Positions 1,285 to 44,291 of a stretch of DNA of 64,000 nucleotides are shown here, piece by piece; within the stretch, counting starts at the first letter, position 1, and every line of letters starts with the position of its first letter. A program made the translations under genes and the position numbers. Source of the DNA: Psychrobacter fulvigenes (GTDB taxonomy: Bacteria > Pseudomonadota > Gammaproteobacteria > Pseudomonadales > Moraxellaceae); assembly GCF_904846155.1 (NCBI RefSeq), contig NZ_CAJGZP010000001.1:1798001-1862000 (forward strand). The letters run 5' to 3'. The notes beneath the pieces are model-generated. The model was given only the letters and a program-made list of their open reading frames with translations, was not told the origin of the DNA and ran no database searches.

Positions 1285-2217
1285 ATGGCTATCGCATCTT
1301 CCCGTTCTGCTTTGATCGGTTTGATTATTGGTTGTATTATTTTTGGTTTGGGCAGTCTAATAGTGGCTCATGTCGATATTGGCGGTTGGGCGATGTCTTT
1401 TTGGCGACTGGCGATCTCAGGGGTAATATTTACCTTTCTGGCCAAGATGACAGGACAACGGATGCCGCGTGCTCGTCGCGCTATTGTCTACGGATTGCTA
1501 TCAGGTGTGTTTTTAGGTTTGGATCTGGCATTATGGCATGAGAGTATTTATGCTGTTGGCCCTGGCATTTCCACCTTACTAAACAGCTTGCAGATCTTCT
1601 TTTTAGCGGCGATTGGCTTTTTGATCTTTAATGAACGCCAGTCAATCCTGCAACTGATTAGCTTGTTTTTAGCGATGTTTGGCGTGGCAATGATTGGTAG
1701 TCCTGAGTTTGCGCATAACTCGGACGCCACTTGGGGTTTTATCGCTGGTATTGTCTCTGGGGGTATGCTGGCGGCTTCTATGACTTTTATCCGCAAAACT
1801 CATGATACTGAGCCAACGCCTATATTTGTATTGATGCAGCTGGTCAGTATCGGCGGTGGGCTTGCTATGGTAGTGCCAATGTTTATTTTTGACATGGGTA
1901 ATATACTGCCAAATACTTGGTCCGAGCTTGGTTGGGTGCTGGTATATGGGGCAGTGATGCAATGTCTGGCGTGGGGGTTAATCGCCTACTCTATTCCAAA
2001 GTTGTCACTGGCGTTGTCAGGCTTATTGCTCTTGACTGAGCCGATTGCTGCTTTGATTATTGATTATAGCTGGCTAGATAAGCCCATTAACTCACTTCAA
2101 TGGGCAGGCGCGCTGCTGACTATGTTTGCCATTTATTTAGGCTCGCTAAAGCCAAAGCCGCGTGCGCTGCGTCGCTATCGGTTCTTTGCCCGCTTTTATC
2201 GACGTAAATACAAGTAA
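1285..2217 (+). CDS. DMT-superfamily EamA-type inner-membrane transporter
   Basis: The 310-residue protein is almost entirely hydrophobic, with about ten predicted membrane helices in two tandem EamA halves (roughly residues 8-140 and 150-290) and a basic C-terminal tail rich in Arg and Lys. This is the standard length and layout of the drug/metabolite transporter family (RhaT/YdcZ-like exporters of amino acids or metabolites). The start is supported by a TAAGGA ribosome site about 8 bases before the ATG. It is monocistronic and followed by a terminator. The substrate cannot be told from sequence. Confidence 0.85.
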   Translation: MAIASSRSALIGLIIGCIIFGLGSLIVAHVDIGGWAMSFWRLAISGVIFTFLAKMTGQRMPRARRAIVYGLLSGVFLGLDLALWHESIYAVGPGISTLLNSLQIFFLAAIGFLIFNERQSILQLISLFLAMFGVAMIGSPEFAHNSDATWGFIAGIVSGGMLAASMTFIRKTHDTEPTPIFVLMQLVSIGGGLAMVVPMFIFDMGNILPNTWSELGWVLVYGAVMQCLAWGLIAYSIPKLSLALSGLLLLTEPIAALIIDYSWLDKPINSLQWAGALLTMFAIYLGSLKPKPRALRRYRFFARFYRRKYK

Positions 2218-2230
2218 TACCCCTTTAATA

Positions 2231-2263
2231 AAAAAGCAGTTAGTCTACAACCAACTGCTTTAA
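2231..2263. terminator. Rho-independent terminator between convergent eamA-type gene and uraA
   Basis: The stem AAAGCAGTT / AACTGCTTT (2233-2241 with 2253-2261) is flanked by A-run and T-run, so it can act in both directions for the converging genes. Confidence 0.75.
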
Positions 2264-2298
2264 AAGAGACTGCTTTTATTTAGTCAAAAGCAAATAGC

Positions 2299-3714
2299 TC
2301 AGTCCTTTTGACGGTTAAACAGAGCATTCAGTACAATAGCCGTCAAAGTTGCCGTACCGATACCGCCCAAATCAAAACCGCCTAAATGCAAGCTGAAGTT
2401 GCCCGTACCCATGATAACAGTGACTGCAGCAATGATTAGATTGCTGTTTTTACTAAAATCAATGTGGTTGTCTATCCAGATTTTTGCACCAGCAATGGCA
2501 ATCAAACCAAAGACTACGATAGAAGCACCGCCCAATAATGCTGCTGGAATGGTTTGGATAATGGCGCCAAACTTTGGTGACAAACCAAGCAAGATAGCAA
2601 CCAGCCCTGCCACCACAAAAATAGTAGTGCTATAAACCTTGGTCACTGCCATGACGCCGATATTTTCGGCATAAGTGGTCACACCCGTCCCCCCAAAACC
2701 TGCTGAAAACGTCGTCGCCACACCATCAGCAAAGAACGCCCGTCCCATATAAGGGGTAACACGTGCTTTGGTCATTCCTTCTACCGCTTTAAAATGCCCG
2801 AGGTTTTCGGCAACGAGAATAAAGGCCACAGGTGCAATCAAGATAATCGCACTCATCTCAAAACGCGGCGAGTGAATACTTGGCAGGCCAAACCATGAGG
2901 CAGCAGCCACGCTACTAAAGTCGATGGCTGTCCCAAACCCTAATACATTGGTCATGACAAAATAGGCTATATAGGATAGTACCAAACCAACTAGGAGTAA
3001 CAAACGTCTGAGCATACCACGGGTAAATACCGCCACACCACTGATTAACAGTACAGTCAAGGCTGCCATCCATGCATCAAACTGATTGGCTGATACCCCT
3101 TGAATGGTAACAGGTGCCAAGTTCAGACCGATAATCATCACAATAGCGCCAGTCACAATCGGGGGCATCAGGCGCTCTATCCAACCTGTGCCTGTCTTCA
3201 TGACCAGCAGCCCTATCAGCGCATAGATGATGCCGCAGGCCATGATGCCGCCTAGCGCAACATCTAGATTACTATTAAAGCCTACCCCAGCATAAGCAGT
3301 CACGGCAATCACGGGACCAATAAACGCAAAGCTTGAGCCCAAATAGCTAGGCATGCGGCCACCTGTTATCAAAAAGAACATCAGCGTACAGATGCCAGAC
3401 ATCAAAATAGCCAAATTGGGGTCAAAACCCATCAATAAGGGTGCCAGTACTGTCGCACCAAACATCGCAAAGGTATGCTGAATACCAAGTAAGATACTTT
3501 TAGATGGCGGTAGATACTCATTAATACCGACTGGATTGTGATCAAGATCTCCTTGATACGGTCGCCAAGTTGGGAACCAACGTCCATTCTCAAAATCTGG
3601 GTTGTCTATGAGCTGCATCGAGGCTGGATCTATAGCAGCTGTTTGCGCAGTTGAAGAAAGTGGCTCTTTAGAGTTGTTTTCTGATTGAGAGGAGTGCTCT
3701 GAGGGAGATACCAT
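2299..3714 (-). CDS. uraA: Uracil/xanthine permease (NCS2 family, UraA-like)
   Basis: The protein is a nucleobase:proton symporter of the NCS2 family. About 14 membrane helices follow a hydrophilic N-terminal tail. Family features visible are LLGIQHTFAMFGATVLAPLL near the first helix, the GGTGVTTYAENIGVMAVTKVYS segment containing the substrate-binding Glu, and the AENLGH motif. The frame is open further upstream to a TTG at 3834, but that stretch is not protein-like. The ATG at 3714 (MVSPSEHSS) has a GGAAA site 8 bases before it, giving 471 residues. Uracil rather than xanthine as substrate is inferred from the overall UraA-like motifs. Confidence 0.88.
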   Translation of the reverse strand: MVSPSEHSSQSENNSKEPLSSTAQTAAIDPASMQLIDNPDFENGRWFPTWRPYQGDLDHNPVGINEYLPPSKSILLGIQHTFAMFGATVLAPLLMGFDPNLAILMSGICTLMFFLITGGRMPSYLGSSFAFIGPVIAVTAYAGVGFNSNLDVALGGIMACGIIYALIGLLVMKTGTGWIERLMPPIVTGAIVMIIGLNLAPVTIQGVSANQFDAWMAALTVLLISGVAVFTRGMLRRLLLLVGLVLSYIAYFVMTNVLGFGTAIDFSSVAAASWFGLPSIHSPRFEMSAIILIAPVAFILVAENLGHFKAVEGMTKARVTPYMGRAFFADGVATTFSAGFGGTGVTTYAENIGVMAVTKVYSTTIFVVAGLVAILLGLSPKFGAIIQTIPAALLGGASIVVFGLIAIAGAKIWIDNHIDFSKNSNLIIAAVTVIMGTGNFSLHLGGFDLGGIGTATLTAIVLNALFNRQKD

Positions 3715-4273
3715 GCGCGCGTTTCCTATGTGACTGTTTGTAACTGAGACTTTGAATTGAAGCTTAAATATAGAGTTTTTATCAACGATGGCAAACATTG
3801 TTTTATGCAGTCTGTCATCTATTAGGTCTAGCAAGTATCAGGCATAAAGAGTTTTAGTTGTACTAGAACATACTTATTTTTATGAATGCGCTAGATTCTA
3901 CTAGATGTCTTAGCCCAGATATGTTCTACTAAACTCAGCGCTTAGGTTGATTACGTCATGATATATTCTATAGTGACAAACAGCTTACAGGATGTTACAT
4001 AAGCGTCGATGCTGAGCATCATAACGGAATTCAATAATAAACAAAAGATATTATTCTCCCATCATCCTTACTACTACGTTTACATACTTTCATAGACAAC
4101 TCGCCGAATCCATCTTTGATGATGATATTGATTATTGATATAAGCCATATCTGTGATGCTTGTATCAGAGGTCAGTATCTGGGTGTTATGGTAGCCGCGA
4201 AACGCTCAAAGTTGTAAAGCTATTTAGGATGAAAAACCATGCTCATTCCATTTCACTTTTTTGGTAACTTATT
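3715..4273. other. Divergent intergenic region uraA/sdaA
   Basis: 559 bases without a convincing gene. It must carry the promoters of the two divergent genes. A short inverted repeat GATGCT...AGCATC sits near 4008-4022. No riboswitch or terminator was recognised. Confidence 0.6.
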
Positions 4274-11531: not shown

Positions 11532-11766
11532 ATACCGCCAGTCGAATATAGTTTGACTTATCCGTCAGCCTATTTGTCTATTTTCTCTATCTTAGCCAGT
11601 TTTGTCATGCTAGTATGAGCTGAAATTACGTTGTTGTTACTCTTCTGTAGGACTTAATTACAATTAATCATATATCAGTCGTATCCGTGCTGATCCGCTC
11701 TACAGATAGCAACAGAGTTATTTTCTCGTAAACATTCCCTATGACTACAACTTGAGGACGCTGGCA

Positions 11767-13458
11767 ATGACAGTGAACAAACCCTGGCTAGATCACTATC
11801 CTTCAAATGTGCCAAAAACGATAGATCCAGATCAATATGGCAATCTGATAGAGCTATATGAGGAATGCTTTGAGCGCTTTCGTTTCCATCCTATGAGTAT
11901 CTGCATGGGGGTTACTCATACTTATGATGATGTTGACAAAGCATCACTCGCAGTTGCTGCGTGGTTACAAGGACAAGGATTGGCTAAAGGCAGTATCGTG
12001 GCACTAATGATGCCAAACGTACCGCAGTATTTACCGATTATGATCGGTATCTTGCGTGCAGGTTTTGTCTGTACTCCTATCAACCCTTTGTATACTGGTC
12101 GTGAGCTACGCCATCAGCTCAATGACTCTGGTGCTGAGGTTATATTTATCGTCGATAACTTCGCTCAAGCTCTCGAACAAGTCGTAGGTGAGACCTCTAT
12201 TAATCGTATCATCCTCTCAAAAATGGGTGACATGATGGGTCTAAAAGGCATCTTAGTAAATACTGTTATTCGTCAAGTAAAACGCTTAGTGCCCAAATAT
12301 GCTCTGAACGACCCTAAATATAAAGTGACCAAGTTTCCTGATGTGCTCAAAGCGGGAAAAAACCTGCCCCATCAAGCACCGGAGATGGAATTAGAACAAA
12401 AAGCCATTTTACAATATACAGGCGGCACTACAGGGTTATCAAAAGGCGCTGTATTGACTCAGCGCAATATCGTTGCCGCAGCCATGCAGTCAGAAGCATG
12501 GTATCGTCCAGTCACCTCAGAGATTGACGAGGTGTATATCAATATGGTTATGGCATTGCCGCTATACCATATTTTTGCTTTTATGCTGAGTTTGCTCGGT
12601 ATGCGCTCAGGCTATACCTTTATTTTAGTACCAAACCCACGCGACATACCAGGATTTATCAAAACTCTCTCAAAGCAGCCTTTTCATATATTTCCCGCTG
12701 TCAATACGCTGTTTAAAGGACTACTTGATCATCCAAAATTTGGACAGTTGAACTTCAGCTCTTTACGTATCTCACAAGCAGGTGGCATGGCAGCGACTGA
12801 GCAAACTGCAGCGCGCTGGTTAGAGGTAACAGGCTGTGCGATGATTGAAGGTTGGGGTATGACTGAAGGCGTCGCTGTAGGCACAGCAAACGTGGTCACA
12901 GATCGTCAGTTTAATGGCACAATTGGCGTGCCAGGCCCTGGGGTTGATGTTATCGTCGTTAATGAAGACAATGAGCGTGTCGGTGTAGGCCAAGCAGGTG
13001 AGATGTGTATTAAAGGCCCTAATGTCACCTCTGGCTATTTTAATCATGATAATAGTGACAGCTTCACTGAAGATGGTTACTTTCGTACTGGTGACATCGT
13101 CAGTATGGACGAAAAAGGCTACTTTACCTTGCTAGATCGAAAAAAAGATATGATCTTAGTCTCAGGATTTAACGTATTTCCCAACGAAGTTGAGTCCGTG
13201 ATGCTCGACTGTGACGCTATCGTTGACTGCGCCGTCATTGGTATTCCAGATGAACGCCAAGGCGAAGCAGTGAAGATTTATATCGTACCTGCAGACAGCA
13301 ACGTCACCGAAGGTGTGATTAGATATTTTGCTCTAGACAACCTAACTGGCTATAAGTGCCCGCGCTATATTGAGTTTGTCAGTGAACTTCCAAAGAGCAA
13401 TATTGGCAAAGTACTACGTCAAAAACTACGTGAAAAGCACATGGCTGAGCATGGTTAG
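11767..13458 (+). CDS. fadD: Long-chain fatty acid-CoA ligase
   Basis: An AMP-forming acyl-CoA synthetase that activates fatty acids for beta-oxidation. Visible motifs are the P-loop YTGGTTGLSKGA (about residue 216), LPLYHIFAF, GWGMTEG (about 362), RTGD (about 440) and DRKKDMILVSGFNVFPNEVE (about 456 on), the fatty-acid signature region of FadD. The frame is open from a TTG at 11752, but the ATG at 11767 (MTVNKPW) has GAGG about 9 bases upstream and is preferred. The protein is 563 residues, against 561 in E. coli FadD. The IS200/IS605-type element begins only a few bases after its stop. Confidence 0.92.
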   Translation: MTVNKPWLDHYPSNVPKTIDPDQYGNLIELYEECFERFRFHPMSICMGVTHTYDDVDKASLAVAAWLQGQGLAKGSIVALMMPNVPQYLPIMIGILRAGFVCTPINPLYTGRELRHQLNDSGAEVIFIVDNFAQALEQVVGETSINRIILSKMGDMMGLKGILVNTVIRQVKRLVPKYALNDPKYKVTKFPDVLKAGKNLPHQAPEMELEQKAILQYTGGTTGLSKGAVLTQRNIVAAAMQSEAWYRPVTSEIDEVYINMVMALPLYHIFAFMLSLLGMRSGYTFILVPNPRDIPGFIKTLSKQPFHIFPAVNTLFKGLLDHPKFGQLNFSSLRISQAGGMAATEQTAARWLEVTGCAMIEGWGMTEGVAVGTANVVTDRQFNGTIGVPGPGVDVIVVNEDNERVGVGQAGEMCIKGPNVTSGYFNHDNSDSFTEDGYFRTGDIVSMDEKGYFTLLDRKKDMILVSGFNVFPNEVESVMLDCDAIVDCAVIGIPDERQGEAVKIYIVPADSNVTEGVIRYFALDNLTGYKCPRYIEFVSELPKSNIGKVLRQKLREKHMAEHG

Positions 13459-13463
13459 ACTAC

Positions 13464-13505
13464 TTGACATACTCCCGCCACTTTCGACAAGCTCAAGCGG
13501 GGGAT
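13464..13505 (-). other. Right-end (RE) hairpin of the IS200/IS605-type element
   Basis: Read leftward after the tnpB stop, the end reads GAATCCCCCGCTT...GCGGGAGTATGTCAA, with stem CCCGC/GCGGG (13474-13478 with 13497-13501). IS605-type right ends have this shape. In that family the end of tnpB plus RE also forms the omega-RNA (guide RNA) of TnpB. Confidence 0.7.
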
Positions 13506-14625
13506 TCTAAAAGCAAAAGCTCTTAGGCGACTTTCTCACGACCGTCGCAAGTTTTCTGCTTCAACGGGCGACCTTTACTGCATCTTCCCTCGACAGACAA
13601 AACGGCATGTCCTGCCGCAAGAATATTACGAGCTGCATTAACATCTGCATTCGCAATATAACCACATTCAACGCACTCAAATTTTGCTTGGGTACGTCTA
13701 TTTTCTTTTGCAACATGCTTGCATTTAAAGCAAGTTTGGCTTGTATAACGCGGGTTTACTTTAATCAGTAACCCGCCGTGCCATTGCTGCTTATAATCCA
13801 TCATATCAATCATCATGCCCCAACCTTGATCTAAAATGGATTTGTTCAATCCTGACTTGGCTTTGACGTTTTTTCCTTTTTTCTCCATCGAACCACTGGC
13901 AGATCTCGACATATTAACTACTTTTAAATCCTCACAGACAATCATGGCGTGGTTTTTGCTGATTGTGGTGGTGATTTTGTGCAAGTAATCATGGCGAATA
14001 TTGGCGATGTGATGATGGAGTTTTTGAATCTTGCGATTGTGCTTTTTCCAATTTTGACTGAATAAGACTTTCCTACTGAGTTGGCGCTGTAATGCAGCCA
14101 GTTTAATTTGATTGGCTTTAAAACTGTTTTTGGGTTTGATAACTTGGCCATCTGAGGTAGCAATCAGTTTAGCGACCCCTAAATCAATCCCTACGGCGGT
14201 TTTAGAGGGATGAATTGGGTTTTGGGCCAACTCCCGCTCTGTGCCAAACGACACGTACCAATGACCGGATTTCTTGCTGATGGTGACGTTTTTAATTATC
14301 CCAAGAATGTCTTGCGATTTTCTAAACTTCACAAACCCTACACTATTCGGTAGTTTGACACGATTGCCTTCAACACGGCAATATTTATCAAACTGCACTA
14401 AGCGTATTGAATCACACCCATCTGATTTGCGTTTAAATCTTGGCATTAGTGGGCGTAATTGGATTTCTGTGCCATCAGTAAGCTTGAAAAACTTAGGCTT
14501 TTTAGGTTTTTTCTTATTCTCTTTCAATCGTGCGTGAGCTTTAGGGTCAAAAAAGCGTGACCAAGCAGAAGCGAGATCACGAATTTTTTGTTGTAAAGAC
14601 ACCGCGTTAGAGTAATGCCAGTCAG

Positions 14626-15942
14626 TTAAGGCTGACTGGTATTTTTTTTGGGATATTTTTGTGGTTTACCCTTAACCACCCTCGGGCAAGATCGCTTTCT
14701 GCGTTCAGGAATGACAAACAATTTTCCTTCCTCTAAAACTGCATCTAACAACTTAGGGAAGAGTCCTGCAGCCTGTAAAGGCGCAAACCGTAAAAGATCA
14801 ACAATCGTAATAGACACCATATGAAAGCTAATTCGTAGAGGGCTAACCTTAGCTCTAACTGCCATATATCGCATCAAACGTCTTATCAGATTATAAGCAA
14901 TCATAAGCCCCCAGAACTCTTGTAACACAAGCTGTGGCAGCTTACTTCTTAACAACAGCCCCTGCTGTAGATCAGACTTAATTTCCCTAAAAGCCATCTC
15001 GATCTCCCAGCGCTGCAAGTACAGCTGTGCCACTTTATCCTTAGTAAAGCGTTTATCATCTATTAAAGAGGTGATGTATCGTCTTATCTTACCCTCATAA
15101 CGACACTCAATTAATCGAGCTTGCCAAGTATCGGGTAGGTTTGGATTTTTCTTTTGAGCTTGGGGAGAAACCGGCATTTGTATCAAGTAGTCCCCTTCAC
15201 TAAAGGTTTCAATCACACTGTAACGCAGATTATCTTTAGCCCGCATGAGCCAGTGACTGTTTGGATGGGTTTGTTGCCAACTAATCAGTAGGTCTGCTGA
15301 GAAATAGGCTCTATCAAAGAGCGTAATGCTGTTGTCTTGAATATTTAGCTGACGGGCTAATGTGATCTCTCCTTGACCCATATCTCCAAGGGTTGTGTCA
15401 ATGATCTCATGCGTGTCAGTATTGATCAGGCATACCGAACGCATTTGGGGATAGGGCGCCTCTTTAGTTCTGCCTTTGCTTGAACTAAAGTACTGAAGGT
15501 TCTCATCAGTATAGGGTAGTGAGTATACGACACCGTCTACAGCTTGGACGCTAAGTCCCATAAAGTCTTGCTGCTGGGCTCGTGATTCTGTTTGGTAGTG
15601 AGCACTTAGTTGATGAAATAGCTGCTTTAGAGGCTCATGCCCGAGGCGTTGTCTTGCTTGTACCACTGCACTGGGTACGCAGGCCTGTGAGTCTATATTA
15701 AGCCGCATCTGCTCTGTGATATACCAAATTGAACGGTTTCGATATAAAGCTGTGCCGATGACTATCCAAACAACGTGTTCGGCAGGTAGCTTACGCCTTC
15801 TAATGCTCGCTTTGCCGGTATACTCTAAAGCTTGCTGTATCCACTCAGGGTCTATTAATTCACTAAATTGTTCTAGGGTGTCTGGAATCCTTTTATGCGT
15901 CTCATTAATAGCGTCTTGTAGTCTCATAGTAAAATAGCCCAT
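14626..15942 (-). CDS. IS4-family DDE transposase, copy 1
   Basis: 438 residues. The N-terminal part (MRLQDAINETHKRIPDTLEQFSELID) resembles the IS4 N-terminal domain. The DDE core has QAVDGVVYSLP (first Asp, about 135), TLFDRAYFSADLL (second Asp, about 211) and YLQRWEIEMAFREIKSDL (about 305-322), which fits the Y-(2)-R-(3)-E-(6)-K signature of the IS4 family. The start is ambiguous: the ATG at 15942 lies inside a hairpin arm and the next ATG at 15927 (MRLQDA) lies just past it. The frame is intact and probably functional. It differs from copy 2 by E/D, N/K and S/T changes. Confidence 0.95.
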   Translation of the reverse strand: MGYFTMRLQDAINETHKRIPDTLEQFSELIDPEWIQQALEYTGKASIRRRKLPAEHVVWIVIGTALYRNRSIWYITEQMRLNIDSQACVPSAVVQARQRLGHEPLKQLFHQLSAHYQTESRAQQQDFMGLSVQAVDGVVYSLPYTDENLQYFSSSKGRTKEAPYPQMRSVCLINTDTHEIIDTTLGDMGQGEITLARQLNIQDNSITLFDRAYFSADLLISWQQTHPNSHWLMRAKDNLRYSVIETFSEGDYLIQMPVSPQAQKKNPNLPDTWQARLIECRYEGKIRRYITSLIDDKRFTKDKVAQLYLQRWEIEMAFREIKSDLQQGLLLRSKLPQLVLQEFWGLMIAYNLIRRLMRYMAVRAKVSPLRISFHMVSITIVDLLRFAPLQAAGLFPKLLDAVLEEGKLFVIPERRKRSCPRVVKGKPQKYPKKNTSQP

Positions 15943-15966
15943 CTACTTATTAGATGGGCTATTTTA
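15930..15966. promoter_or_regulatory. 15-bp inverted repeat covering the transposase start (copy 1)
   Basis: Arms 15930-15944 and 15952-15966 (TAAAATAGCCCATCT and its complement) enclose 7 bases and include the ATG at 15942. A transcript reading in from outside the element would fold this region and hide the start, the known protection used by IS10 and IS50. A shorter internal transcript might escape. Confidence 0.65.
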
Positions 15967-16561
15967 TTACTTTTATTGAGTTTTTGCCTTAACTGACTGG
16001 CATTACCGCGTTAGAGCTTGTTTTTAAGAACGCAAACTCAGGATTTGCTTTAATATCCATGATTTTATTAACCAAATTGGTTGCATTAATAAACTCATTT
16101 TTAGCAAACATCTCAAACGATACCGCAAGCATTTGATTCCAAACAAAACGTGCAGAACCAACAAGGTTATTTAAGATAACCTCTTGCTCTGCATTAGGCT
16201 CAAGCCTAAATTTGTACGCTTTATTAATTTTCATAATGGATGCTTTATTAGTCAGTGTGTTTGTTATTTATACCATGTTATACTATATAACATAAACAAT
16301 AAAGGGTATTTATTATAATGAGTGAGATATATAAAAACCGTCATTCTGCTTATAATCTGCATGTGCATTTGGTATTCATCACCAAGTACCGCAAAAAGGT
16401 TTTAGCTGATAATCATCGTCAATACTTTAAAGAAGTTGTTGCTGAGATATGCAAGGATTTTGGTGCAGAACTCAAGGAATGTAACGGTGAAGGCGATCAT
16501 GTTCACATGCTGATTCAATACCCGCCAACGGTACAACTAAGTAAGATGGTTAATAATTTAA

Positions 16562-17269
16562 GGGGCTGTCCTAGATAAGTAAAATTATTTAGGATAGCAC
16601 TATGAGAAAAAGCAAACTAAGTTGGTATAAACAAAGCAGACTAATCGAGTTATTTGTTGCCGGTTCTACCGCCAGAACAGCAGCAAGCCTAGTTGGTGTT
16701 AATAAAACTACAGCCAGTTATTACTTTCATAGGCTACGACTACTTATTTACGAGAATAGCCAAGACCCTGGTCTATTTGAAGGCGAAACCGAAGTAGACG
16801 AATCATACTTTGGTGGAACTCGTAAAGGCAAGCGAGGGCGAGGTGCTGGTAGCAAAGTGCCCGTGTTTGGCCTACTAAAGCGTAATGGCAAGGTCTACGC
16901 TTGTATTATACCCAATGCTAAAGCAGATACTTTGATCCCCATCATAAGAGAAAAAGTGAAGCCTGATAGCATTGTTTATACTGACTCATTTAAAAGCTAT
17001 AACGCATTAGATGTCAGTGAGTTTACTCATTATCGTATCAACCACTCTAAAACCTTTGTTAATGACAAGAATCATATTAACGGTATAGAGAACTTCTGGA
17101 ACCAAGCTAAACGGCATCTACGTAAGTTTAACGGGGTCCCAAAAGAGCATTTTCACCTCTATTTAAAGGAATGTGAGTGGCGTTTTAATCACAGTGACCC
17201 AAAGTCGCAATTACTACAATTAAAACAATGGGTTAAACAGGGTTTGAGCTAATTATCTAGGACAGCCCC
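16562..17269. mobile_element. IS1595-family insertion sequence (708 bp)
   Basis: The perfect terminal inverted repeats start GGGGCTGTCCTAGATAA. The 8-bp target duplication TAATTTAA lies at 16554-16561 and 17270-17277. Size and single ISXO2-like transposase gene fit the IS1016 branch of the IS1595 family. It interrupts tnpA. Confidence 0.93.
16602..17252 (+). CDS. IS1595-family (ISXO2-like) transposase
   Basis: 216 residues with an N-terminal helix-turn-helix (TARTAASLVGVNKTTASYYFHRLR, about 23-46) followed by the ISXO2-like DDE domain: GETEVDESYFGG (first Asp, about 66), IVYTDSFKSYNAL (second Asp, about 128), and the NGIENFWNQAKRHLRKFNG block (about 163-181) near the third acidic residue. 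The HTH and full DDE domain are intact, so the element may be active. The start is the ATG 40 bases inside the left end. Confidence 0.93.
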   Translation: MRKSKLSWYKQSRLIELFVAGSTARTAASLVGVNKTTASYYFHRLRLLIYENSQDPGLFEGETEVDESYFGGTRKGKRGRGAGSKVPVFGLLKRNGKVYACIIPNAKADTLIPIIREKVKPDSIVYTDSFKSYNALDVSEFTHYRINHSKTFVNDKNHINGIENFWNQAKRHLRKFNGVPKEHFHLYLKECEWRFNHSDPKSQLLQLKQWVKQGLS

Positions 17270-17307
17270 TAATTTAAAGTCGGTCACAAGTCGGCGCATG
17301 AGAGCTA

Positions 17308-18391
17308 ATACCAAACCCAACAATTAAAGTTGCGCCCAGGTACGAGCAGTTAAAGACCGAATCCTTTGTGGCTGTTTAAGTAGATTATTCCAAGCCAAGC
17401 ATGCGGCATCGACAATAGCCTCATAACTGTCATAACAACGATTAGATAGCTCATTTTGCATAAGGTACTGCCATACCCTCTCAGAGCGATTAAGCTCAGG
17501 TGAATAAGGCGGTAGTTTAAGCATAGTGACATTAGCCTGATTCAAGCTTGGTTGATGCCATAATGCGCCGTCCCTCCCACCACCGCATGACGTCCTTTTG
17601 GAACGGCTCTACTAATCTCTTGCACATGCAATAACATGGTGTGTTTATTAACGAAAGGCAGTACTAAGCCGACAGCCTTCTTTGTCGCTGGACAAAAGGC
17701 ACCAAACAGATAAGCGGAATGAAACTGTTGCTGCTTGATCAGTCGAGGTCGCCCACCGCGGTAATGCCAAACTCTGGTCAATGAGCCTTGTTGTCCTATT
17801 CGAGTTTCATCTTGAAACCAGATGTCCACTTGATCTAAGCTCACATCAGTAGGCAGTGACGCCTTAACCTGTGCTATAAAGTTTTTTAAAAGCGTCTTGA
17901 GCTTGTGGGTCGGCTTTTGGATGCTGACTACGAGCACTTATCCAACTCATATCAATACGCTTGAGTAGCTCGTAGATACCGTTAACGGTGTAGTGAGCGT
18001 TGTAGTGTTCTTTAGCCAATTGCTGAATGTCTTTGCCGGTTAGACGACCGCCAGCGCGCTTTTCTTGTTCAGAGACTATCATGGCTTTAAAAGCGGCTGT
18101 GTCTGCTTCTGCCAATTTGCTGCGACGACCTCGACGATGACGATCGTAGAGACTCTCAAGTCCTCGTTCATAATATCGCTTCAATGTCCGTCTGGCAGTT
18201 TCAGGATGTATGCAGAGGTCTTTGGCAATATCGTTGGTGGCTTTGCCTATACTATATTGGTATAAGATGAGCAGGCGTAGTCGGGCTCTGGGATTGCGCT
18301 CAGTCTTTGAGTGTTTGCCAAAATCATGGTCTTCTAGGTTATGTATTGGTATAGTCATAAGTGGATTATACTATATATTTTGGGTTTGGTA
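17308..18391. mobile_element. IS630-family insertion sequence (about 1084 bp)
   Basis: The ends ATACCAAACCCAA and TTGGGTTTGGTA form inverted repeats. The target dinucleotide TA is duplicated (17306-17307 and 18392-18393), as expected for the IS630/Tc1 group. It interrupts the third part of tnpA. Its transposase frame is broken, so it is probably unable to move by itself. Confidence 0.9.
17324..18358 (-). pseudogene. IS630-family transposase, two frame changes
   Basis: Three consecutive leftward frames together form a 345-codon IS630 transposase. The first (18358 to 17864) holds HTH domains (NDIAKDLCIHPETARRTLKRYYERGL). The second (from the A-run CTTTTAAAAAAC near 17885 down to about 17570) carries the first catalytic Asp in IWFQDETRIGQQG. 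The third (to 17324) carries MLKLPPYSPELNRSERVWQYL with the catalytic Glu. The first shift sits in a homopolymer and might be programmed; the second, near 17570-17580, disrupts the region of the second Asp (DGALWH in the shifted frame) and is probably a one-base loss. The net shift is zero. Confidence 0.85.
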
Positions 18392-18524
18392 TAACTTCAT
18401 TGACTTAAGGGCGGCTTATAATAAGCCTGTGTTGTGGTCGCGTTCTTACTTTGCAGGCTCTTGTAGCGGCGCACCGTTGGAGATTATTAAGCAATACATT
18501 CAAAATCAGCAGAGTTAGGCTATA

Positions 18525-18567
18525 CGAAATTTACCTCCACCCTAGCGTCGGGTGGAGGTAAATTTCG
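18525..18567. repeat. Perfect 18-bp hairpin after tnpA (candidate left end of the IS200/IS605 element)
   Basis: Arms 18525-18542 and 18550-18567 are exact complements with loop TAGCGTC, starting seven bases after the tnpA stop. IS200/IS605 ends are subterminal hairpins recognised by TnpA, so this is the likely left end. No T-run follows, which argues against a plain terminator. Confidence 0.6.
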
Positions 18568-18594
18568 TTAGATTGATAGCATATCAATGGTCAT

Positions 18595-18631
18595 AAAAAA
18601 CCCCTCTACACAATAATGTAGAGGGGTTTTT
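18595..18631. terminator. Rho-independent terminator downstream of the SDR gene
   Basis: The perfect stem AAAACCCCTCTACA / TGTAGAGGGGTTTT with a 6-base loop is flanked by A- and T-runs, so it is active in both directions. It ends the leftward cluster whose last gene stops at 18660. Confidence 0.88.
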
Positions 18632-18659
18632 GCTGTTTAAATAAGCATTGACGAACTGA

Positions 18660-19529
18660 TTAGCTAATTTTGTTAACAATACCAAGTGGTAAGTGCTTCA
18701 TTGCTTGACCCACAATTGACCAAGGCAAGCTTGGTACACAGGCTTCTGCCACCCCAGACTCAATGGCAGCCACGATGGCTTTGGTGCCTGTATCAGCATC
18801 GACTTCAAATGGCAACGGTTTGGCATTGGTATTGATTTCGGTACGAATATAACCTGGATAAATAGTAGAAACCTTAATTGGCAGTTTCTCGAGTAGCATA
18901 TCCGCACGAATACCTTCTGCCAAATATGCCAAACCAGCCTTGCTAGCGCCATAAGTGGTCATATGCTTAGGCAAGCCGCGCATCGCTGACATGCTAGATA
19001 TCACCACCAAATGACCACTGTTTTGGGCACGAAATATTTTCATTGCCGCTTCGCACTGTGCCAACGCTGAGATGAAATTAATCTCAGCCGTACGGCGATT
19101 GGTCTCAAAACGGCCTTTACCAATGCGGCGACTCTCTCCCACTCCTGCGTTGACTACTACGCGGTCGATGTGACCGAAATCAGCAGCAAAAGCATCAAAC
19201 ACTTCAAATATCGCATCATAATCAGTGACGTCAAGCACGCGATACTCAATACGAATATCAGCATAGCGATCCATGAGCTCAGCTTTTAGCTGCTCCAGAC
19301 GTTCGGCACGGCGGGCGCATATGGCTAAATTGTAGCCTAGACTTGCAAAGATGCGCGCCATTGCCTCACCAAGGCCTGAGCTGGCACCGGTGATCAATAC
19401 CGTTTTGTCGAGGCCAACTTGCGATTTCGTCAAGCCTTTTAAATAGCGTGCTGGCTGAATAGCGCTGAATGTCTGATCTTTGCCTTGTTTGGCAGTCTGC
19501 GTTACCAAATTCATTAATTTATTTTGCAT
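18660..19529 (-). CDS. Short-chain dehydrogenase/reductase (SDR family)
   Basis: A classical SDR: the NAD(P)-binding TGASSGLGEAMA lies about residues 44-55, NAG in VVNAGVGESRR, the catalytic Ser in VVISSMSAM, and YGASKAG with the Tyr/Lys pair about 191-197. The frame is open much further upstream (to 19721), but the ATG at 19529 (MQNKLMNLV) has AAGGGA upstream and gives 289 residues; the longer form would overlap the neighbouring gene and a terminator. It is last in a leftward group with a histidine phosphatase, an APH-type kinase and an acyl-CoA dehydrogenase. It likely oxidises or reduces a hydroxyacyl intermediate (inference). Confidence 0.85.
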   Translation of the reverse strand: MQNKLMNLVTQTAKQGKDQTFSAIQPARYLKGLTKSQVGLDKTVLITGASSGLGEAMARIFASLGYNLAICARRAERLEQLKAELMDRYADIRIEYRVLDVTDYDAIFEVFDAFAADFGHIDRVVVNAGVGESRRIGKGRFETNRRTAEINFISALAQCEAAMKIFRAQNSGHLVVISSMSAMRGLPKHMTTYGASKAGLAYLAEGIRADMLLEKLPIKVSTIYPGYIRTEINTNAKPLPFEVDADTGTKAIVAAIESGVAEACVPSLPWSIVGQAMKHLPLGIVNKIS

Positions 19530-42854: not shown

Positions 42855-42911
42855 TTAGTAGCTAACCGTTAGGTTTTTTAAAAGACTCACCATTGGTGTA
42901 ATGCCAGTCAG

Positions 42912-44228
42912 TTAAGGCTGACTGGTATTTTTTTTGGGATATTTTTGTGGTTTACCCTTAACCACCCTCGGGCAAGATCGCTTTCTGCGTTCAGGAATGA
43001 CAAACAATTTTCCTTCCTCTAAAACTGCATCTAACAACTTAGGGAAGAGTCCTGCAGCCTGTAAAGGCGCAAACCGTAAAAGATCAACAATCGTAATAGA
43101 CACCATATGAAAGCTAATTCGTAGAGGGCTAACCTTAGCTCTAACTGCCATATATCGCATCAAACGTCTTATCAGATTATAAGCAATCATAAGCCCCCAG
43201 AACTCTTGTAACACAAGCTGTGGCAGCTTACTTCTTAACAACAGCCCCTGCTGTAGATCAGACTTAATTTCCCTAAAAGCCATCTCGATCTCCCAGCGCT
43301 GCAAGTACAGCTGTGCCACTTTATCCTTAGTAAAGCGTTTATCATCTATTAAAGAGGTGATGTATCGTCTTATCTTACCCTCATAACGACACTCAATTAA
43401 TCGAGCTTGCCAAGTATCGGGTAGGTTTGGATTTTTCTTTTGAGCTTGGGGAGAAACCGGCATTTGTATCAAGTAGTCCCCTTCACTAAAGGTTTCAATC
43501 ACAGTGTAACGCAGATTATCTTTAGCCCGCATGAGCCAGTGACTGTTTGGATGGGTTTGTTGCCAACTAATCAGTAGGTCTGCTGAGAAATAGGCTCTAT
43601 CAAAGAGCGTAATGCTGTTGTCTTGAATATTTAGCTGACGGGCTAATGTGATCTCTCCTTGACCCATATCTCCAAGGGTTGTGTCAATGATCTCATGCGT
43701 GTCAGTTTTGATCAGGCATACCGAACGCATTTGGGGATAGGGCGCCTCTTTAGTTCTGCCTTTGCTTGAACTAAAGTACTGAAGGTTCTCATCAGTATAG
43801 GGTAGTGAGTATACGACACCGTCTACAGCTTGGACGCTAAGTCCCATAAAGTCTTGCTGCTGGGCTCGTGATTCTGTTTGGTAGTGAGCACTTAGTTGAT
43901 GAAATAGCTGCTTTAGAGGCTCATGCCCGAGGCGTTGTCTTGCTTGTACCACTGCACTGGGTACGCAGGCCTGTGAGTCTATATTAAGCCGCATCTGATC
44001 TGTGATATACCAAATTGAACGGTTTCGATATAAAGCTGTGCCGATGACTATCCAAACAACGTGTTCGGCAGGTAGCTTACGCCTTCTAATGCTCGCCTTG
44101 CCGGTATACTCTAAAGCTTGCTGTATCCACTCAGGATCTATTAATTCACTAAATTGTTCTAGGGTGTCTGGAATCCTTTTATGCGTCTCATTAATAGCGT
44201 CTTGTAGTCTCATAGTAAAATAGCCCAT
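42912..44228 (-). CDS. IS4-family DDE transposase, copy 2
   Basis: 438 residues, essentially the same protein as at 14626-15942, with D for E, K for N and T for S at three places (YITDQMRLN, CLIKTDTHE, LRYTVIE). The DDE core and the Y-(2)-R-(3)-E-(6)-K signature are complete, so the copy is likely active. Transcription of this leftward gene runs toward the entericidin-like gene. Confidence 0.95.
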   Translation of the reverse strand: MGYFTMRLQDAINETHKRIPDTLEQFSELIDPEWIQQALEYTGKASIRRRKLPAEHVVWIVIGTALYRNRSIWYITDQMRLNIDSQACVPSAVVQARQRLGHEPLKQLFHQLSAHYQTESRAQQQDFMGLSVQAVDGVVYSLPYTDENLQYFSSSKGRTKEAPYPQMRSVCLIKTDTHEIIDTTLGDMGQGEITLARQLNIQDNSITLFDRAYFSADLLISWQQTHPNSHWLMRAKDNLRYTVIETFSEGDYLIQMPVSPQAQKKNPNLPDTWQARLIECRYEGKIRRYITSLIDDKRFTKDKVAQLYLQRWEIEMAFREIKSDLQQGLLLRSKLPQLVLQEFWGLMIAYNLIRRLMRYMAVRAKVSPLRISFHMVSITIVDLLRFAPLQAAGLFPKLLDAVLEEGKLFVIPERRKRSCPRVVKGKPQKYPKKNTSQP

Positions 44229-44252
44229 CTACTTATTAGATGGGCTATTTTA
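44216..44252. promoter_or_regulatory. 15-bp inverted repeat over the transposase start (copy 2)
   Basis: Same sequence as at 15930-15966 (arms 44216-44230 and 44238-44252), including the ATG at 44228. It is conserved between the two copies, in keeping with a role in limiting transposase translation from outside transcripts. Confidence 0.65.
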
Positions 44253-44291
44253 TTACTTTTATTGAGTTTTTGCCTTAACTGACTGGCATTA

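What the first reader, a model, noticed from the sequence alone, without database searches (positions are those of the whole stretch)
13464..18570. One IS200/IS605 element hit three times by ISs of three families, each excisable in silico to restore frames exactly
Seen directly: an IS4-family element with 11-bp duplication in tnpB, an IS1595-family element with 8-bp duplication and an IS630-family element with TA duplication in tnpA. Removing insertions plus one duplication leaves 399 bases (132 aa) for tnpA and 1308 bases (435 aa) for tnpB, both multiples of three with family motifs continuous across joins. This is a rare, clean palimpsest giving a relative order of events. It may be a safe landing site just after fadD.
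Basis: partly seen in the sequence, partly recalled or inferred. Interest (0 to 1): 0.72.

Follow-up and report, generated by a model that had tools for sequence, protein, structure and literature searches.

The report
Jumping gene broken by three others
A small bacterial jumping gene has been hit by three other jumping genes and also carries a changed end hairpin; an unbroken twin elsewhere in the same genome shows what was there before, so this is a clean but mostly ordinary genomic fossil.

Summary
An IS605-type element (divergent tnpA and tnpB) between fadD and an SDR gene is split by an IS4, an IS1595 and an IS630 element. An uninterrupted copy in the same genome (L011) settles it: it encodes a 132-aa TnpA and a 435-aa TnpB, and the five window pieces tile these genes end to end. 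The IS630 duplication is better read as TAA (rule TNA) than TA.

The claimed order is only partly right: the IS605 element came first, but the three insertions lie side by side and have no readable order. The gap after fadD is not a common landing site: 64 of 67 other genomes have no room for an element there, though one has a decayed tnpB-like remnant.

The IS605 copy is a mosaic of at least three lineages. Its only private changes, in about 1,930 bp, are five adjacent bases that make the left-end hairpin a perfect 19-bp palindrome; 21 of 22 pattern matches in the genus keep an imperfect one. A template switch explains this best and probably disables that end. Overall: a new example of known processes.

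The parts
13464..18575 (-). Whole interrupted IS605-type element (right end at 13464, left-end tip about 18575)
   Evidence: Right-end conservation starts at 13464 in sister copies; left tip inferred from the CTAT context shared by left ends at different sites
13464..13522 (-). Right end, 3' of tnpB; tip reads GTATGTCAA in element orientation
   Evidence: The 97 bases 13464-13560 are identical in sister copy L011 and in G066
13523..14601 (-). tnpB, 3' piece (positions 229-1308 of 1308); OrfB_IS605 and Cas12f1-like TNB domains kept
14602..14612 (.). 11-bp target duplication CCGCGTTAGAG, left copy
14613..16005 (-). IS4-family element, transposase 14626-15942 (438 aa, open)
   Evidence: 11 full-length copies in the genome, this one included
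16006..16016 (.). 11-bp target duplication, right copy
16006..16234 (-). tnpB, 5' piece (positions 0-229 of 1308), ATG at 16234
16318..16561 (+). tnpA, piece 1 (0-244 of 399); ends with the left TAATTTAA copy 16554-16561
16562..17269 (+). IS1595-family element, transposase 16602-17252 (216 aa, open)
   Evidence: 4 copies in the genome, this one included
17270..17277 (.). 8-bp target duplication TAATTTAA, right copy
17278..17308 (+). tnpA, piece 2 (244-275 of 399); ends with the left TAA copy 17306-17308
17309..18391 (-). IS630-family element; transposase frames 17864-18358, 17542-17937 and 17324-17545; lacks one base near 17576 that the 16 other own-genome copies compared have
18392..18394 (.). 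3-bp target duplication TAA, right copy
18395..18518 (+). tnpA, piece 3 (275-399 of 399); 15 differences from L011, 14 of them synonymous
18524..18568 (-). Left-end hairpin, perfect 19-bp stem with 7-nt loop; imperfect stem in relatives
18558..18562 (.). Five adjacent private changes (TCCTC in the five compared copies, GTAAA here)

Best explanation
An IS605-type element, itself a recombinant of several lineages of its own family, sat in the fadD-SDR gap. Three resident IS families then inserted at three separate places in it, each leaving its usual target duplication; together they cut tnpB in two and tnpA in three. Separately, one replication error copied one arm of the left-end hairpin onto the other (template switch at a quasipalindrome), so that the 5x5 internal loop that relatives keep became a perfect stem. 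Shown: the insertions, the duplications, the exact tiling on a natural intact copy, the mosaic, the five private bases. Inferred: that the five bases changed in one templated event, that the perfect stem is not recognised by TnpA, and so that the remnant cannot be moved in trans by the intact TnpA genes of the same genome.
For: Tiling on L011; L011 ORFs of 132 and 435 aa. Resident copies of each inserted family, this locus included: 11 full-length IS4, 4 IS1595, 17 near-full-length IS630 plus two partial matches. Same kind of duplication at other copies: IS4 11 bp in 6 of 10; IS1595 8 bp in 2 of 3, read by eye from the flanks printed; IS630 TNA in 22 of 24. Among the matches listed (105 genomes, list cut short) only the window's joins fadD to the IS605 right end. 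Mosaic: 13464-16127 like L011; 16132-18395 like L012 except at two columns; 18398-18473 like P. maritimus (L119) at 15 of 15 variable columns; 18488-18515 like L011. Piece 3 differs from L011 by 14 synonymous and 1 non-synonymous changes, so that tract diverged in a working gene. Hairpin: five private bases, exactly in the five positions unpaired in relatives; 21 of 22 genus matches keep the GAGGA block; 17 of 21 named loci examined keep the AGAGGA motif; predicted DNA stem energy -21.3 against -11.7 kcal/mol for L011.
Against: No reads or second assembly were available, so the hairpin change and the duplications rest on one assembly. The insertions could have come with a recombined segment rather than by local transposition. 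One group of TnpA_REP proteins acts on perfectly palindromic REPs (PMC8266576, passages), so loss of function of the perfect stem is not certain. Four of the 21 named loci (L229, L231, L232, L235) do not show the motif in the 110 bases examined.
Confidence: 0.8

Rival explanations
1. The perfect hairpin is an assembly or sequencing artefact at an inverted repeat, not a real mutation.
For: Inverted repeats can mislead sequencing and assembly (recalled); no reads were available.
Against: Exactly five bases differ, with unchanged length, inside a 3.4-Mb contig of a 5-contig assembly. The two sister copies in the same assembly are not affected.
Confidence: 0.1
2. The perfect hairpin came in by recombination from an IS605 lineage that has it, not by template switch in place.
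For: The element is a mosaic, so recombination with relatives has happened; the base at 18532 in the other arm is shared with L012 alone of the five copies.
Against: None of the 21 other left ends found by pattern in 105 genus genomes, and none of 21 named loci (partly the same copies), has a perfect stem here. The pattern needs exact stems, so diverged ends were not sampled.
Confidence: 0.1
3. The three insertions can be ordered by their own divergence, with the IS630 oldest.
For: The IS630 copy has the most private changes: four substitutions absent from the 24 full copies compared, plus a missing base present in 16 of 16 own-genome copies. IS4 has 1 in 1393 against 10 copies, IS1595 1 in 710 against 3. 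Share test p about 0.05, with 5 of 7 changes in IS630.
Against: The IS605 sequence around it, which must be older at this site, shows no private change outside the hairpin in about 1,930 bp. At the IS630 rate this has probability 0.00016. So the IS630 changes more likely predate its arrival or reflect an unsampled donor.
Confidence: 0.15

Closest known systems
IS200/IS605 family, IS605-type divergent tnpA/tnpB (IS608, ISDra2 as models)
   Same: Y1 transposase gene and TnpB gene in divergent order; subterminal hairpin; right-end tip ending in TCAA, which PMC5934647 (passages) gives as the IS608 right cleavage site
   Different: Both genes broken by insertions; left-end hairpin perfect instead of imperfect; left context CTAT in 17 of 18 copies printed rather than TTAC of IS608
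Halanaerobium hydrogeniformans IS605 locus 18, tnpB disrupted by a putative IS21 element (PMC7290912, passages)
   Same: An IS605 element with tnpB interrupted by a larger IS; rest of the element still identifiable
   Different: One insertion there; three of three families here, with a natural intact twin in the same genome
Quasipalindrome-associated template-switch mutation in E. coli (PMC7202029, passages)
   Same: An imperfect inverted repeat becomes perfect or more perfect by copying of one arm
   Different: Here inferred from comparison of natural copies, in a transposon end, not seen in an assay
IS630/Tc1-mariner elements inserting at TA (ISY100; PMC2170065 and PMC6400869, search listing only)
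   Same: Transposase pieces match the IS630 profile and DDE_3
   Different: This group duplicates TNA (22 of 24 other copies), not a bare TA

Membership tests
IS200/IS605 (IS605 type) | Y1 (HUH) transposase TnpA | tested here: met
   Y1_Tnp found in two window pieces; L011 TnpA 154.9 bits, cut-off 55, to NF033573
IS200/IS605 (IS605 type) | TnpB gene, divergent from tnpA | tested here: met
   NF040570 263.6 bits on the large piece, cut-off 100; opposite strands
IS200/IS605 (IS605 type) | Imperfect subterminal hairpin at the left end | tested here: not met
   Perfect in the window copy; imperfect in 21 of 22 genus matches. Read as a derived loss in a dead copy; the sister copies L011 and L012 meet it
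IS200/IS605 (IS605 type) | No target duplication, insertion 3' of a short fixed sequence | tested here: inconclusive
   CTAT precedes the left end in 17 of 18 copies printed; empty sites in ten relatives are too diverged to fix the exact target
IS4 family | IS4-type DDE transposase, inverted repeats, about 11-bp duplication | tested here: met
   NF033592 248.7 bits, cut-off 115; 11 bp. The typical length is recalled
IS1595 family | IS1595-type transposase, inverted repeats, 8-bp duplication | tested here: met
   NF033547 182.6 bits, cut-off 75; ends GGGGCTGTCC/GGACAGCCCC and 8 bp. That these are typical is recalled
IS630 family | IS630-type transposase | tested here: met
   Two pieces match NF033545 at 97.1 and 58.1 bits (each below the whole-protein cut-off of 100); DDE_3 above its cut-off in two pieces
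IS630 family | TA target duplication | tested here: not met
   TNA duplicated in 22 of 24 other copies; TAA in the window. Member by transposase, variant by target
Quasipalindrome template-switch mutation | Imperfect repeat becomes perfect by clustered changes copied from the other arm | tested here: met
   Five of five adjacent private bases complete the pairing
Quasipalindrome template-switch mutation | Single replication event | not testable with these tools
   Inferred from clustering only

The most novel reading that the evidence does not exclude
A natural quasipalindrome correction has locked a transposon end. By making the left-end hairpin perfect it removed the internal loop by which the single-strand transposase recognises its end, so the remnant is immobile even though intact tnpA genes exist elsewhere in the same genome. 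Such self-inflicted end loss could be a general way in which single-strand transposons die, since their ends are imperfect palindromes and therefore targets of template switching.
Probability: 0.5. Interest if true: 0.5.

Novelty: new member of a known kind. Interest (0 to 1): 0.32.

Why it matters
It gives a clean worked case: a triple-hit element and its unbroken twin lie in one genome, so each insertion and duplication can be checked against nature. The hairpin change makes a testable point: single-strand transposons depend on imperfect hairpins, which replication tends to make perfect. The truncated tnpB piece still passes the general TnpB profile (263.6 bits against 100), a warning for surveys that count TnpB nucleases by profile alone.

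Tried and rejected
Rfam search of 13300-18700 gave three matches, each well below its gathering score and judged chance; no guide-RNA family was found, so nothing is claimed about a TnpB guide RNA. Plasmid search gave matches in 9 records, none covering 80% of the query. Exact IS605 target from empty sites in relatives: the gap sequences are too diverged. Ordering the three insertions by divergence: rejected as unsafe. Paper searches: 'IS630'+'TNA'+'target site duplication' gave one paper, not read; 'IS605'+'hairpin'+'template switch' gave none; 'quasipalindrome'+'template switch'+'insertion sequence' gave one paper, on mitochondrial genes by its title, not read; the phrase 'nested insertion sequence' did not occur in the 15 papers listed of 129; two searches were used only to pick papers. 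The landing expectation (33 copies, assumed 0.5 Mb of tolerant DNA, P of three or more hits in one given 1.9-kb element about 0.0003) rests on assumed figures and ignores the many elements that could have been noticed, so it is not used as evidence. The confidence of the best explanation was lowered from 0.9 to 0.8 so that it agrees with the odds given to the two rivals about the hairpin.
Full report
OBSERVATION. The stretch 13464-18575 is one IS605-type element with three insertions. Profiles find tnpB in two pieces, tnpA in two pieces (a third, of 31 bases, is too short), and transposases of IS4, IS1595 and IS630. Edges and duplications: IS4 14613-16005 with an 11-bp repeat, IS1595 16562-17269 with an 8-bp repeat, IS630 17309-18391 with TAA.

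DECISIVE CONTROL. The same genome holds an uninterrupted copy, L011, with tnpA of 132 aa and tnpB of 435 aa. The window pieces fall on L011 tnpA at 0-244, 244-275 and 275-399 with 1, 1 and 15 mismatches, and on tnpB at 0-229 and 229-1308 with 4 and 1 mismatches. A third copy, L012, has an open tnpA and a tnpB open in two overlapping parts of 294 and 175 aa.

IS630 DUPLICATION. Among 24 other full copies (16 in this genome, 8 in other species), 24 have TNA at the right flank and 22 have the same TNA at both flanks, N being A, T or G. Two copies (L142, L204) have unequal flanks. With TNA as the repeat, both inverted repeats of the window copy begin TACCAAACCC. TN with an element-borne A fits as well; bare TA does not explain why N agrees on both sides.

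SURROUNDINGS. The genus search covered 105 genomes, the window's own included; 94 had some match, and at most six candidates per genome were scored. Among the listed matches only the window's joins fadD to the IS605 right end; the list is cut short, but a joined match would score high. For 67 other genomes the fadD end and the SDR side could be paired on one contig and strand from the listings (copied by hand): in 64 the match edges are 23-334 bp apart, median 152. Of the other three, G003 and G082 hold a further full-length fadD. G100 holds a fadD copy with an internal deletion and an IS1595 transposase gene (167.8 bits, cut-off 75), then about 2.2 kb before the SDR gene with short frames, two of which read like tnpB; tblastx to the window's tnpB gives E 4e-7. 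So a tnpB-bearing element seems to have landed in this gap in one other species and decayed. Ten relatives read at sequence level have no room for an IS605 element there.

MOSAIC. Five relatives were compared column by column: L011 and L012 (own genome), L119, L120 and L121. The window matches L011 from 13464 to 16127 (1148 of 1149 in the large tnpB piece); L012 from 16132 to 18395 except at 16239 and 16242; P. maritimus at 15 of 15 variable columns from 18398 to 18473; L011 again at 18488-18515; at 18532 only L012 agrees. The first switch lies inside the 5' tnpB piece, not at an insertion edge; the switch near 18395 lies at the IS630 edge. Piece 3 of tnpA differs from L011 by 14 synonymous and 1 non-synonymous changes.

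HAIRPIN. In about 1,930 compared bases the window has no private substitution except five adjacent ones, 18558-18562. They fill exactly the five unpaired positions of one arm, each with the base that pairs to the other arm. The genus pattern search found 22 left ends in 11 of 105 genomes; 21 keep the GAGGA block and only the window copy is perfect. The pattern demands exact stems, so diverged ends are missed. Of 28 named loci found with TnpA, 21 were examined, some of them the same copies as: 17 keep the AGAGGA motif after tnpA, in Psychrobacter, Acinetobacter and an Alcaligenaceae MAG; four (L229, L231, L232, L235) do not show it there; none is perfect at this place. Predicted single-strand DNA energy is -21.3 kcal/mol for the window and -10.6 for each sister stretch (those two stretches were cut one base off and lack one pair; one search gives -11.7 for the full L011 hairpin).

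MECHANISM. A quasipalindrome template switch makes an imperfect inverted repeat perfect or more perfect (PMC7202029, passages). TnpA of IS608 binds subterminal imperfect palindromes (PMC5934647, passages). In E. coli TnpA_REP, changes that restored a regular stem eliminated activity, but another group of REPs is generally perfectly palindromic (PMC8266576, passages). From this I infer, and have not shown, that the window's left end is no longer recognised.

ORDER OF EVENTS. IS605 first. The three insertions do not cut one another. Private changes: IS4 one in 1393 against 10 copies, IS1595 one in 710 against 3 copies. In IS630, 17460, 17487, 17609 and 17625 are private against the 24 full copies, and the base missing near 17576 is present in 16 of 16 own copies; 17838 and, by alignment, 17574 are shared with some other-species copies. 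Since the older IS605 sequence shows none outside the hairpin (P 0.00016 at the IS630 rate), the IS630 changes more likely came with it. When the hairpin changed relative to the insertions is unknown.

VERDICT. Known families, known processes, unusually well documented. The hairpin is the part worth following.

Noticed in passing
window 17309-18391; loci L142, L149-L163, L182-L187, L203, L204: The IS630-type element duplicates TNA rather than TA: 22 of 24 other copies have the same TNA on both sides and 24 of 24 have TNA on the right.
   Followed up: partly
window near 17881; L162, L163: A homopolymer run at the overlap of the two IS630 transposase frames varies by one base between copies, which may be a slippage site.
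   Followed up: no
L213 (G100:C2:530200-534400), about 1549-4057: In another species the same fadD-SDR stretch holds a broken fadD copy with an IS1595 gene and then decayed pieces that resemble tnpB (tblastx E 4e-7).
   Followed up: partly
window 42899-44291: Second copy of the same IS4 element in the window, with 11-bp duplication CACCATTGGTG.
   Followed up: yes
window 11752-13458 and relatives: Many relatives give two or three fadD matches in a row about 2.3 kb apart, while the window genome gave one among its scored candidates and the window itself holds one.
   Followed up: no
window 13523-14602: The cut-off tnpB piece (359 aa, GTG start at the IS4 edge) still scores 263.6 against a cut-off of 100 for the general TnpB model, so it could be annotated as a TnpB nuclease although its N-terminal part is missing.
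   Followed up: partly
G000:C1:499945-502681 (L142) and 3222997-3224732 (L164): Other IS clusters in the same genome: an IS4 about 50 bp from an IS630, and two partial IS630 matches abutting each other.
   Followed up: no
L136 and L138: Two IS4 copies with unequal flanks share left-flank sequence, as if recombination between copies had exchanged their surroundings.
   Followed up: no
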